Part shown: piece by piece, positions 47,317 to 59,396 of the stretch
Numbering within the stretch: the first letter of the stretch is position 1
How the letters are laid out: every line of letters begins with the position of its first letter
Origin: Romanomermis culicivorax
Taxonomy: Eukaryota > Nematoda > Enoplea > Mermithida > Mermithidae
Length of the DNA stretch: 64,000 nucleotides
Reading direction: 5' to 3'
Assembly: GCA_963922205.1 (NCBI GenBank)
Contig: CAWUHX010000218.1
Span: 434,001-498,000 of the forward strand
Notes under the pieces: generated by a model
What the model was told of the DNA's origin: nothing
The model's database searches: none
Seen by the model: only the letters and a program-made list of their open reading frames with translations
Position numbers and translations under genes: made by a program

Positions 47317-47899
47317 TGTCGTGCGTGAGAAATTGAGAGTAGACGACGGAACGCAGTTAAGAATTTAGCTGTGTAGCTTGACGATTTATCGCGCGTTTTA
47401 GAAGAGACGTACGGAACGTAGAAGAGCATGCGGAACCCTTTAGACGAAACACTCGGAGTGTTTTACGAAATCAACGCAACGATAGTTGAACGCAGGAGAT
47501 TGACGGGCTCGTAGAGAGCGCTGTGTCAATTATCCAGGGATCTTCACTCAGGTCGTCAAAGGTTTTTGGATGCCGAAACTCGCGCCGTACTAACTTAATC
47601 GCTTAGGAGTTTCACTCGCTTACTCAAACTATTTTCCAAATAGTTTGACTCAACTTAGAACACACTTTTCACACGATTTACTAATGTACAAAATAGCCGC
47701 CTCACACTTTTCAGACAAAACACAAAACACAACCGTTTGGCTACAGTACAACCGAATCTAATGAAAAACATTTTCATAATTTCTTCACATCGTAGCCACG
47801 CCTCTTCGCGGGTCTTGTCACGATCTTTTCCTTCGAACTTGCCGATCTTTTTTCAAAAACAACACGAGCTTTACAAATACGCCAAATCGCTCCACAACA
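47317..47899 (-). repeat. 3' LTR of the gypsy element (583 bp)
   Basis: Partner of 58814-59396. It adjoins the polypurine tract on its inner side. Roughly 97 percent identical to the 5' LTR by hand count. Confidence 0.95.
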
Positions 47900-47913
47900 C
47901 TCCTCCCCCTTTC
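47900..47913 (-). promoter_or_regulatory. Polypurine tract
   Basis: On the minus strand GAAAGGGGGAGGAG directly abuts the start of the 3' LTR, the expected place for the plus-strand primer. Confidence 0.9.
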
Positions 47914-48245
47914 GATGTAAATCGCCTCAAGCGATTCCGACGTGTCGTGGTGAGTTGACGTTTTGATCGTATGAGAGCGTTTAGCTCGTTTTTTGGCAAG
48001 CTTCCTTCGACGGTTTGTCTTTCTCGTTTTATACGCTGCGGCACATACTACACAAACAAAGAAAATTCAAACAATGTTATCACAAAAAATGTTACAGCAC
48101 AAAGTGATGAGCAACTGAAAACTAGTATTTCACACTGAGAAATTTAAAATTTTAGAGATTTGAAAGAAAAGATTCTAGTGGAAAAAGAATAAACTAGTGA
48201 AAGAAAAGAGATGCATTTAGCATCATGATACTTATCCATTTCCAC

Positions 48246-50819
48246 TCATTTCCGCGGAAATCCACGACCTTTAGGCAAAACTTTGGTCGGGGTTTTGCTC
48301 CCTTTCAGAATACCCGGTGGGGGCATCTGTATCGATTGACTTGTAGTCGGCGCACGTGGGGCCAAAGCTCGTTGTGCGGCTCCCAATGATGTTCGAACTC
48401 CAACCACCGATGGTTGAGTTGTCGCGGTCGTTGTCATAGTGATGATCGGAGCCGGTGTCATTTGATACTTTTGCGGTACGGCTGCTTTTGCCATTATCAT
48501 TGCGTCTTTCTTTTTCTTTTCCTCGGCTTGTTTGTCCATTTCGATTTGATATTCGCAATGAATGTCTCGGATGGTGGCCTTTCTTTCTTCAGTCGCCGGA
48601 TAATTCGGGGCTCGCGTATTGGTCAGGCATTGCAAAATGTAGCGTAGAGCCATCGAATATGAATTATCAGTTGTTTTGTAGTCGTAGGCCTGTCTGGCAT
48701 GGAAGAGGAACAGCGTGAGCTGTGTTATAACGATTGCGTTTTCGGCGCCGTAATACTTGTAGTAATCGCACATCCAGCTTAGAAGAACTGCAGTGAGTTC
48801 TTCTGTGTAATGCGGATCTCGTCACAAATATCGTGCTTGGAAATAGTCAGGGAAGTCCTGAGCTATTTGTTGCGAAGCCGCGGTAGCTTGACGTAAAATG
48901 ACGGGATCAAAATCCAAATGGGCACAATTGAAGTAATTAATGATAATTGCTTCATCGGTCGTTCTCGGTTGGATTAGGGCCGTAATAGGCGCAGTAGGTA
49001 CGCTGGGGTACCGTTGTTCGAGCGGTGTACGCGGTCTATCGTGTCGTCGGTACGGAACTTTATATTCTCGGACGGTTCGTTGTGGTTTTTGTTGTTCGCT
49101 AGCCATTTCCGCTTGCTGCGACGTTGTTGGTTCGTCAATCATCGGCTCGGAGTCGGCCGTCGGAGGCTGTTGGCTCTCTAGTTGTTCTTTTCGCAGTTCA
49201 TCTCGCTTCAAAGCACTGGCCCATTCGATTCTCTTTTGTCGATCCTTCGATTCACTAGGATGTTCTCGTCTATAGTCGCGATCTCGGTGAAATTTTCTAG
49301 GACGCTCGTTCGACGCGTATTCACTATGTCGATATTTTCGACTATCATAATCGTCGCTTTCTTTTCGGGCAGTAGACCGCGAAGGTCGTTCTTGTGATCG
49401 CGAATAGGTTTCCTTTTGTTCTCTACTTCGGGTATCTTCCCGCGAATCGCGTCATTTTTTAGCTGGGGGCACGTAATTAGGATCTTCTGGATGAGTGTCC
49501 AGATAATCCTGTATTGTGTGCAACTGTCTATCAATAGCATTTCGTCTGCGAAACAGTGAAAACTGATACACTCTGACGTTGCGAATGGGTTCACCGTGTT
49601 CGTCGCAGAGTCGATCGTCTTTTACCTCCAAAATAGGAGTGGTGGTTTCGGTACTGATAGGGGTAGAGGTGTCTTCCTCGTTTTTCTTCGGTATTCAGTA
49701 TCGCGTAGGTACTATTTTCGGACGTACCATTTTCGTATCTTCTTCTTCTACGTCATCCATTCGAGAGATATCGTACATCCAAGTGGTTTTCACCAGCGCG
49801 GCTTTCTCTTGTATATTTTGATTTTTTATCCCTTCCGATTCCAATTCGAATGTACTGTACGATAGGTTTTTGGATAACGGAGTTAACGAGGATGTGGTTT
49901 TAGTCGTCCTCATAGGAGCAGTAGTATCAGCTGTAGATACGTCTTCTTCTTCGCTTTCGATTTGTATAACGTCGGTTTCGGTTGGTAGTTCCGTTTTTAC
50001 CGTGAACGATTCTTCGGCGGTTTGTTTGAGCAACGAATTGATGGCCATCGCCGTTTCTGTGTTGAATTCGGTATCCGCGGTAGATTGTGTAGGAGCCTGT
50101 GTAGGCATTTTCGTCGGACTTTCTCCCGTCAATATAGCAGTTGGAAGTACGGGTAAATTCGAACTCATTGTTAAAATATGGCTCGGTGGAAAACAAATGA
50201 GTTGTTCACATTTTCTCGACGTCAAAATCGGTGAATTGTATGAAAAATAGTACTAGGGATTTTCCCTATACTTCTTTTTCGTTACGAGATCAGTTTCGCT
50301 GGAGACAGGAAAGCTGTCGTTTCTGAACACAATGGGGCGCATAAAATATCTATTCGCATGTACCGGTCGTTTATTGTCGCTGAGACTCTTTTCGTTGTAT
50401 GGTAGGCGATTAGCCCATTCCATCAGTTCGAATTCGAACGTTCCGTCTCGTTTCACCCAATTTTGTTCGCATATGAGATCAATGTCGATACTGTCGCTTT
50501 TCGATAACAGTTTCGAAATCTCATTTTTGATTATGGCTCGCAATTCCATTTCGGAATGTGGGGAGCAGACATGCGCGACTAGAGGCATAGTTCCGCGAAC
50601 GGCGTTCATCCATTGATAGTGATTTAGAAGCATGTAGAGCGGCGTTAGAGCCGGCTTTTTGGCGATCTGATGATCGTATTTTATTTCGTAGATCGGCCAC
50701 GTTTCGGGAGGACCGTAGGTCGTAAACGGATCGTTCACGACTAGATTGAAGTTCATTTGCTTCGCTTCGTCGCTTGTCACCATGTTTTGATCTATTTCGG
50801 ACAGAAATAGTAACGACAT
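48246..50819 (-). pseudogene. Second accessory frame of the gypsy element, 858 codons with four stops, RS/RD-rich
   Basis: One frame runs from ATG 50819 to the stop at 48246, broken by TAG at 50253, TGA at 49695, TGA at 49452 and TGA at 48822. Its upstream part overlaps the exonuclease ORF end in another frame. Parts: an N-terminal globular segment (YEIKYDHQIAKKPALTPLYM), a serine/threonine/acid-rich part with QIESEEEDVS, a segment ending DTHPEDPNYVPPAKK, a strongly basic stretch with DYDSRKYRHSEYASNERPRK and FHRDRDYRREHPSESKDRQK (like SR/RD-rich RNA-binding proteins), and a C-terminal part with SWMCDYYKYYGAENAIVIT ending in a proline/threonine tail. I recognise no family. All four stops fit single C-to-T changes. 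Confidence 0.6.
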
Positions 50820-50875
50820 AGGAGCGCCAACTTCATGATGAATACTAACTACGTCATTGGAGCGTAAAGCTCGCT

Positions 50876-58773: not shown

Positions 58774-58795
58774 TTCCTCAATCTTTAGACGAGCT

Positions 58796-58808
58796 GGTAC
58801 GGTCACCA
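58796..58808 (-). promoter_or_regulatory. Primer-binding site candidate
   Basis: On the minus strand TGGTGACCGTACC lies five bases inside the 5' LTR. It begins TGG, as needed to pair with a tRNA 3' CCA end. The sequence resembles the tRNA-Arg primer site of some insect elements (TGGCGACCGTGAC), but with differences; the primer tRNA is an inference. Confidence 0.7.
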
Positions 58809-58813
58809 AATTA

Positions 58814-59396
58814 TGTCGTGCGTGAGAAATTGAGAGTAGACGACGGAACACAGTTAAGAATTTAGCTGTGTAGCTTGACGATTTATCGCACGTTTTAGAA
58901 GAGACGTACGGAACGTAGAATAGCGTGCGGAACGCTTTAGAGGAAACACTCGGAGTGTTTTATGAAATCAACGCAACGATAGTTGAACGCAGGAGATTGA
59001 CGGGCTTGTAGAGAGCGCTGTGTCAATTATCCAGGGATCTTTGCTCAGGTCGTCAAAGGTTTTTGGATGCCGAAACTCGTGCGGTACTAACTTAATCGCT
59101 TAGGAGTTTCACTCGCTTACTCAAACTATTTTCCAAATAGTTTGACTCAACTTAGAACACACTTTTCACACGATTTACTAATGTACAAAATAGCCGCCTC
59201 ACACTTTTCAGACAAAACACAAAACACAACCATTTGGCTACAGTACAACGGAATCTAATGAAAAACATTTTCATAATTTCTTCACATCGTAGCCACGCCT
59301 CTTCGCGGGTCTTGTCACGATCTTTTCCTTCGAACTTGCCGATCTTTTTTCGAAAACAACACGAGCTTTACAAATACGCCAAATCGCTCCACAACA
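58814..59396 (-). repeat. 5' LTR of the gypsy element (583 bp)
   Basis: On the minus strand it starts TGTTGTGGAGCG and ends CTCACGCACGACA. It is the same length as the 3' LTR, with about 15 substitutions and no gaps by my count. Confidence 0.95.

What the first reader, a model, noticed from the sequence alone, without database searches (positions are those of the whole stretch)
47317..59396. Gypsy retrotransposon carrying an RNase D/EXD2-like exonuclease in the env position
Seen: complete LTR boundaries, PBS, PPT, gag-pro-RT-RH-IN in order, then on the same strand an intact 387-codon frame with the motif series GFDVGK, IGFNQADDWKCL, VDVQIIL, YSILDAY. Known: this order and spacing (D, D, Y-x3-D, with a lysine-rich helix before motif III) is that of DEDDy exonucleases such as WRN, EXD2 and RNase D. 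Inference: a cellular 3'-5' exonuclease was captured by the element and retained. Possible roles include trimming cDNA or RNA, degrading silencing RNAs, or binding RNA. I know of no well-established gypsy lineage with such a gene, but I cannot search. It is the longest unbroken non-RT frame in an otherwise stop-ridden copy.
Basis: partly seen in the sequence, partly recalled or inferred. Interest (0 to 1): 0.9.

Follow-up and report, generated by a model that had tools for sequence, protein, structure and literature searches.

The report
Nematode retrotransposon with a spliced exonuclease gene
A mobile genetic element present in over a hundred copies in a mosquito-killing roundworm carries, where a virus would keep its envelope gene, a large spliced gene that appears to start with an enzyme domain that trims RNA or DNA ends; selection has kept it intact, and a similar arrangement has been described in rotifers.

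Summary
Window 47317-59396 (minus strand) is a Ty3/Gypsy-type element of the nematode Romanomermis culicivorax with LTRs, TSD, PBS, PPT, PR-RT-RH-IN and a third ORF. The 387-codon frame is only the start of a spliced ~1,324-aa ORF3 (54-aa exon 1, ~200-nt intron, 1,273-codon exon-2 frame), unbroken in 30 of 105 scored places. The window copy is decayed and lacks the motif-I Glu that 35 of 40 copies keep. The exonuclease region is under strong purifying selection (dN/dS 0.04-0.09 in most comparisons). Of 117 integrase places, 97 have ORF3 at the normal distance; one examined place lacks it, so ORF3 is not needed in every copy. The DEDDy assignment is indirect: this family does not reach PF01612, but a sister family (25-28% identical, same intron position) does at E 9e-5 to 1.6e-3. 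A third family has a canonical DEDDy frame downstream of integrase. DEDDy ORF3s are published for bdelloid rotifer LTR elements, so this is a new variant of a known kind; my searches found no nematode report. Most likely it is a 3'-5' exonuclease acting on RNA or cDNA ends; substrate and role are unproven.

The parts
58814..59396 (-). 5' LTR (583 bp)
   Evidence: blastn of the two LTRs, 570/585 identical; ends and flanks read
47317..47899 (-). 3' LTR (583 bp)
   Evidence: 15 of 583 positions differ from the 5' LTR
47313..47316 (.). target site duplication AATA (left)
59397..59400 (.). target site duplication AATA (right)
58794..58808 (-). putative primer binding site (TGGTGACCGTACCAG), 5 nt inside the 5' LTR
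   Evidence: sequence; the tRNA was not identified
47900..47913 (-). polypurine tract GAAAGGGGGAGGAG
   Evidence: sequence
56657..58461 (-). gag-like region (broken frames), inferred from position only
   Evidence: frames; no gag family matched in the two frames searched
56273..56653 (-). aspartic protease
   Evidence: PF13975 E 5.4e-7
54577..55740 (-). reverse transcriptase and start of RNase H
   Evidence: PF00078 5.2e-35, PF17919 1.9e-12
53800..54573 (-). presumed rest of RNase H and linker to integrase
   Evidence: frame; position only, no domain search of this piece
52814..53854 (-). integrase
   Evidence: PF00665 6.3e-12, PF17921 1.2e-7
52221..52328 (-). remnant of ORF3 exon 1 (36 of 54 codons aligned; donor lost)
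   Evidence: tblastn with exon 1 of another copy, E 5e-17
52057..52220 (-). remnant of the end of exon 1 and the ORF3 intron (acceptor TTTTTTAG kept)
50915..52056 (-). ORF3 exon 2, first part, containing the DEDDy-type exonuclease region. Motif I codons 51880-51878 (Asp) and 51874-51872 (Gly here, Glu in most copies); motif II Asp 51658-51656; motif III Tyr 51352-51350 and Asp 51340-51338
   Evidence: bridge to PF01612
48249..50912 (-). ORF3 exon 2, remainder (residues 386-1273), other frame, with four internal stops (50253-50255, 49695-49697, 49452-49454, 48822-48824); no known domain and no TM-strength segment in an unbroken copy
   Evidence: tblastn 87% identical to an unbroken copy over 888 aa

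Best explanation
This is one decayed copy of a high-copy, recently active Gypsy-type LTR retrotransposon of R. culicivorax whose third gene (ORF3) encodes a ~1,324-aa protein without a TM-strength segment and with an N-terminal DEDDy-type 3'-5' exonuclease region. Shown: ORF3 sits between integrase and the 3' LTR in most copies, is held by strong purifying selection, and has a conserved intron, also present in a diverged sister family. Inferred: unspliced RNA is the genome and gag-pol message, and a spliced message makes ORF3, as retroviruses do for env. The protein would bind two metal ions through its acidic residues and remove nucleotides from 3' ends of RNA or single-stranded DNA during the element's cycle: its own RNA or cDNA ends, or host silencing siRNAs. 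Because at least one copy with a long unbroken pol frame has no ORF3, the protein may act in trans or be dispensable in some lineages. My odds: DEDDy fold 0.87, catalytically active in unbroken copies 0.75, spliced expression 0.8, 3'-end processing in replication 0.4, counter-silencing 0.3.
For: At least 105 places scored (3,394 first-look candidates); by my count of the table 30 of 105 have an unbroken frame of 1,270 codons or more. Integrase-first search: 88 of 117 places have a listed ORF3 place 748-893 bp downstream, 9 more at 857-872 bp with a second list. In the 20 best-scoring of 104 other ORF3 places: 3' LTR in 20, 5' LTR in 19, LTR pairs 96.7-100% identical, matching 4-bp TSDs in 11 of 13 with resolved LTR ends. 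dN/dS of the exonuclease region: 0.084 among 29 copies, 0.042 between these and 10 more diverged copies (synonymous sites largely saturated), 0.153 among those 10, 0.050 among 9 unbroken copies. Catalytic positions in 40 copies: D 39, E 35, D 38, Y 40, D 40. Sister family: 25-28% identity with GFDVEK and Y-x3-D in register; PF01612 E 1.1e-3, 1.6e-3, 8.8e-5, one copy over the cut-off together with its neighbours; integrase tail 40% identical to the window's. Intron: donor GGTAAGT in 29 of 30, acceptor TTTTTTAG in 28 of 30 loci, exon 1 open and 163 nt long in 28 of 30; same position and phase in the sister family. Host: no PRG-1/Piwi in R. culicivorax, HENN-1 with the same pattern of loss (PMC4323106, passages).
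Against: Two unbroken copies give no Pfam hit at E<=1; of 18 family members scanned only the window copy touched PF01612 (E 0.13). None of the 119 PF01612 places in the genome lies within 5 kb of the 105 places. Sequence and profile searches of the PDB found no exonuclease. Both AlphaFold models are poor (pLDDT 36 and 47) and fold searches listed no exonuclease. A profile comparison of the window family alone with the canonical family was no better than shuffles (39 of 100), against 0 of 100 for the sister family and 1 of 100 combined. ORF3 is not universal: 19 of 117 integrase places had no ORF3 place within 4 kb in either capped list, and the one examined has LTR sequence there although its integrase lies in a 2,008-codon unbroken frame. 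No expression, splicing or activity data.
Confidence: 0.7

Rival explanations
1. The domain has the DEDD fold but is a catalytically idle nucleic-acid-binding module, like Maelstrom or EXD1, so ORF3 is a structural RNA-binding accessory protein.
For: Weak match to PF01612; most of ORF3 is not exonuclease, and an uncharacterised stretch (residues 1031-1180) has the lowest dN/dS of the eight segments, 0.037. Maelstrom and EXD1 as inactive derivatives are described in PMC5408684 (passage).
Against: DEDDy residues are kept in most copies: E in 35 of 40, the other four positions in 38 to 40 of 40; the sister family keeps them too.
Confidence: 0.16
2. The frame is a host gene, or a chance long frame, carried along in some copies.
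For: Match to known families is weak; homologs found only in R. culicivorax (20 of 20, 52 of 52); at least one copy lacks ORF3.
Against: At least 105 places; 97 of 117 integrase places have it at a near-constant distance; strong selection; a diverged sister family has the same integrase-ORF3 order and intron.
Confidence: 0.03
3. ORF3 does the job of an envelope: a divergent env-like protein whose resemblance to an exonuclease is incidental.
For: Position after integrase and inferred spliced expression mimic env.
Against: No segment of the exon-2 frame reaches TM hydrophobicity (best 19-residue mean 1.31), four N-glycosylation sequons in 1,273 residues; DEDDy motifs in register and PF01612 match of the sister family.
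Confidence: 0.04

Closest known systems
Juno and Vesta LTR retrotransposons of bdelloid rotifers with DEDDy-type ORF3 (Rodriguez, Kenefick and Arkhipova 2017, PMC5408684)
   Same: RNase D-like DEDDy exonuclease as ORF3 downstream of pol in LTR elements; more than one LTR lineage in one genome carries it; some lineages lack ORF3; no TM domain
   Different: Different phylum. The passages I read mention no intron and no >1,300-aa ORF3; they report a DEED variant and, for the extra ORFs examined, no significant departure from neutrality, whereas here dN/dS is far below 1 and motif I is D-x-E. Direct sequence relation could not be tested (rotifer sequences not held)
Terminons / Athena Penelope-like elements (PMC6431247, PMC5408684, passages)
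   Same: Retroelement carrying DEDDy exonuclease ORFs
   Different: Penelope-like reverse transcriptase, telomeric, without this LTR and integrase architecture
Dada DNA transposons with DEDDy exonuclease domain (PMC3706591, passages)
   Same: DEDDy domain recruited by a mobile element
   Different: DNA transposon; the domain lies inside the transposase
Cellular DEDDy exonucleases: RNase D, Rrp6, WRN, MUT-7/Nibbler
   Same: Motifs of the window and sister families fall in register with E. coli RNase D in a joint alignment (motif I of the third family L084/L085 was misplaced in it)
   Different: No significant direct sequence match of the window family to any of them

Membership tests
DEDDy 3'-5' exonucleases (PF01612) | Motif I D-x-E | tested here: met
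   D in 39 and E in 35 of 40 copies; the window copy itself has G
DEDDy 3'-5' exonucleases (PF01612) | Motif II Asp and motif III Y-x3-D in register | tested here: met
   Asp-137 in 38, Tyr-239 in 40 and Asp-243 in 40 of 40 copies; aligned with E. coli RNase D and a canonical family
DEDDy 3'-5' exonucleases (PF01612) | Profile match above curated cut-off | tested here: inconclusive
   Window family: best 12.5 bits, two unbroken copies none. Sister family: 18.7-22.8 bits against a cut-off of 23.6; one copy reaches 24 with its neighbours in the genome scan
DEDDy 3'-5' exonucleases (PF01612) | RNase H-like DEDD fold | tested here: inconclusive
   Model pLDDT 47; by my reading the strand/helix order of the first half fits, but no exonuclease among listed fold matches
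DEDDy 3'-5' exonucleases (PF01612) | Metal-dependent 3'-5' exonuclease activity | not testable with these tools
   needs protein
Ty3/Gypsy LTR retrotransposons | LTRs with TG...CA, short TSD, PBS, PPT | tested here: met
   LTRs and TSDs of other copies
Ty3/Gypsy LTR retrotransposons | Order PR-RT-RH-IN | tested here: met
   reverse-transcriptase clade not determined
Errantivirus-like elements with env | ORF3 with a transmembrane anchor | tested here: not met
   no 19-residue window above 1.31 on the Kyte-Doolittle scale in the exon-2 frame of one unbroken copy; exon 1 not scanned, signal peptide not tested
Bdelloid DEDDy-ORF3 LTR elements | Sequence homology of ORF3 to Juno/Vesta ORF3 | not tested
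   sequences not held; homology searches returned only R. culicivorax, with limited reach

The most novel reading that the evidence does not exclude
ORF3 is a transposon-encoded suppressor of RNA silencing: a spliced, selected 3'-5' exonuclease that trims siRNAs in a nematode lineage that lacks piRNAs and, on published data, the 2'-O-methyltransferase HENN-1. Several LTR families in the genome keep such enzymes as an arms-race tool, and ORF3-less relatives profit from it in trans.
Probability: 0.2. Interest if true: 0.88.

Novelty: new variant of a known kind. Interest (0 to 1): 0.62.

Why it matters
It extends the DEDDy-ORF3 arrangement from bdelloid rotifers to a nematode and shows strong purifying selection on it, so the protein does something useful for the lineages that keep it. 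The intron conserved between families 25-28% identical in protein points to retrovirus-like splicing of an accessory gene. Probably three LTR-type families in one genome carry exonuclease frames, which makes the idea of a shared pool of such genes testable, and related elements with and without ORF3 in the same genome offer a natural comparison. If the target is small RNA, it would be an animal transposon that encodes its own silencing suppressor.

Tried and rejected
Direct evidence for the DEDDy fold in the window family was sought and mostly not found. hmmscan gave E 0.13 for the window copy, nothing else of this family among 18 members, and nothing for two unbroken copies. PDB sequence and profile searches gave no exonuclease. 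Two structure predictions stayed at pLDDT 36 and 47. Foldseek and VIA-align on the second model listed no exonuclease; with such a model that says little. NCBIfam gave nothing for the window or sister family. Profile-profile scores against column shuffles were at background for the window family alone. The case therefore rests on the sister family.

The UniRef name 'NurA domain-containing' for P0002 found no support in Pfam. Env, private insertion and host gene were considered and rejected (see rivals). A census of the sister family was asked for and never answered: the genome search was busy. Reverse-transcriptase clade, tRNA primer, LTRs of the sister and third families, and a dN/dS comparison with pol were not done. 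Whether the 18 other integrase places without a listed ORF3 truly lack it was not examined; both lists are capped. Papers: passages only were read of PMC5408684, PMC5718144, PMC6431247, PMC3706591, PMC10879605 and PMC4323106; other papers were seen as search listings. 'Not in print for nematodes' rests on searches of an open-access library only. Resemblance to WRN and EXD2 motifs beyond what print is recall.
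Full report
What is there. The tool places the window in a genome of 359,112,060 bases in 595 contigs; the published v2 assembly of R. culicivorax has 359.1 Mb in 595 scaffolds (PMC10879605, passages), and the protein relatives found are from this species (20 of 20, 52 of 52). The element spans 47317-59396 on the minus strand. 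Its two 583-bp LTRs differ at 15 positions, are flanked by AATA, and enclose a putative PBS and a PPT. [quoted passage not shown]

The extra gene. A whole-genome search with it scored 105 places, a lower bound; in 30 of these the frame is unbroken over 1,270 codons or more (my count of the table). Upstream, a 54-codon exon 1 ends at G|GTAAGT and is followed about 200 nt later (199-214 nt in the five copies measured) by TTTTTTAG; in those five the junction reads through in phase. Of 30 loci, 29 keep the donor and 28 the acceptor, and 28 have an exon 1 that is open from an ATG and 163 nt long. Gene models in UniRef (P0001, P0017) give the same junction peptide. The window copy has lost the donor, changes frame near 50,913, has four in-frame stops, and has Gly in place of the motif-I Glu.

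It belongs to the element, but not to every copy. In the 20 best-scoring of the 104 other ORF3 places, the 3' LTR was found in 20 and the 5' LTR in 19 within the stretch fetched. LTR pairs are 96.7-100% identical (two at 100%), and 4-bp duplications match in 11 of 13 copies whose LTR ends were resolved. These copies were chosen by ORF3, so I also searched by integrase: of 117 scored places (7,874 first-look candidates), 88 have a listed ORF3 place 748-893 bp downstream; a second, P0017-based list (222 matches, partly shown) adds nine at 857-872 bp and one at 2,678 bp. That leaves 19 with none in either capped list, most of them among the lower-ranked integrases. In the one I examined (C75) the sequence where ORF3 would be is LTR, 95% identical over 306 bp, while its integrase lies in an unbroken 2,008-codon frame. 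So ORF3-less relatives exist, whether ancestral or derived.

It is under selection. Nei-Gojobori counts pooled over pairs give dN/dS 0.084 (29 copies, 406 pairs), 0.042 (these 29 against 10 more diverged copies, nine of which hold stops; synonymous differences are largely saturated there), 0.153 among those 10, and 0.074 for the window copy against the 29. In nine unbroken copies the exonuclease segment has 0.050 and the other seven segments 0.037-0.171. Pairs are not independent and no pol comparison was made, but the direction is clear.

Is it a DEDDy exonuclease? Directly, the evidence is thin: PF01612 at E 0.13 for the window copy, nothing for two unbroken copies, no exonuclease in the PDB by sequence, poor models and no exonuclease in fold searches. 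A genome scan with PF01612 gave 119 places, 95 over the cut-off by my count, none within 5 kb of the 105. But seven of these 119, weak matches, lie in frames of 1,232-1,398 aa; the three I fetched (L082, L083, L087) are a sister family, 25-28% identical to this exonuclease region over 261-298 aa with the motifs in register. They match PF01612 at E 1.1e-3, 1.6e-3 and 8.8e-5. For one of them I read the upstream side: it has a homologous integrase tail (40% over 140 aa) and the same intron position and phase, with exon 1 ending RQNNRYFLVD against RQDDRFFFAD. Catalytic positions are kept in 35 to 40 of 40 window-family copies. Profile shuffles agree: sister family against the canonical family 0 of 100, combined 1 of 100, window family alone 39 of 100. 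I take the DEDDy assignment as probable, not proven.

A third family. L084 and L085 are canonical PF01612 proteins (E 7.9e-11 and 9.5e-14); in the genome scan 12 places have frames of 608-610 codons, one of them with a stop. Some 0.6 kb or more upstream of L084 lies an integrase (PF17921 E 3.8e-6; 29% over 180 aa to the window's). Thus at least two and probably three LTR-type families in this genome carry an exonuclease frame after integrase; LTRs of the second and third were not examined.

How it may work. The exon-2 frame lacks a membrane segment, so an envelope is unlikely. The conserved intron suggests that unspliced RNA serves as genome and gag-pol message while spliced RNA makes ORF3. 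The enzyme would act on 3' ends of RNA or single-stranded DNA. Authors of the rotifer work suggested 3'-end processing of element RNA or a role linked to silencing. R. culicivorax has no PRG-1/Piwi and HENN-1 shows the same pattern of loss, while clade I nematodes keep an RRF-3-type RdRP and Trichinella makes Dicer siRNAs against transposons (PMC4323106, passages). siRNA 3' ends may thus be exposed; counter-silencing is a serious but untested option.

Compared with what is known. DEDDy ORF3s in LTR elements were described in bdelloid rotifers in 2017, in Terminons and inside Dada DNA transposons. The present case differs by host phylum, the size and splicing of ORF3, and the evidence of selection. 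My searches of the open-access library found no nematode report.

Noticed in passing
genome places, L084, L085, L086: A repeated family of canonical PF01612 exonuclease frames (12 places with 608-610 codons) with an integrase upstream in the one case examined: apparently a separate LTR-type family with a DEDDy ORF.
   Followed up: partly
L090 (G000:C75:428350-428800): An element with 94% identical integrase in an unbroken 2,008-codon frame has LTR sequence where ORF3 would be: an ORF3-less relative.
   Followed up: partly
G000:C158:182213, 187991, 193769: Three equal-scoring partial PF01612 matches (30.1 bits) spaced exactly 5,778 bp apart, so perhaps a tandem array holding an exonuclease fragment.
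   Followed up: no
P0054 (R. culicivorax UniRef protein): A gene model joining an RNase_T (DEDDh) domain and a PF01612 (DEDDy) domain; may be a prediction artefact or a TE remnant.
   Followed up: no
window 48528-48977 (ORF3 residues 1031-1180): An uncharacterised stretch after an Arg/Ser-rich region has the lowest dN/dS of the ORF3 segments (0.037 in nine unbroken copies) and no Pfam match.
   Followed up: partly
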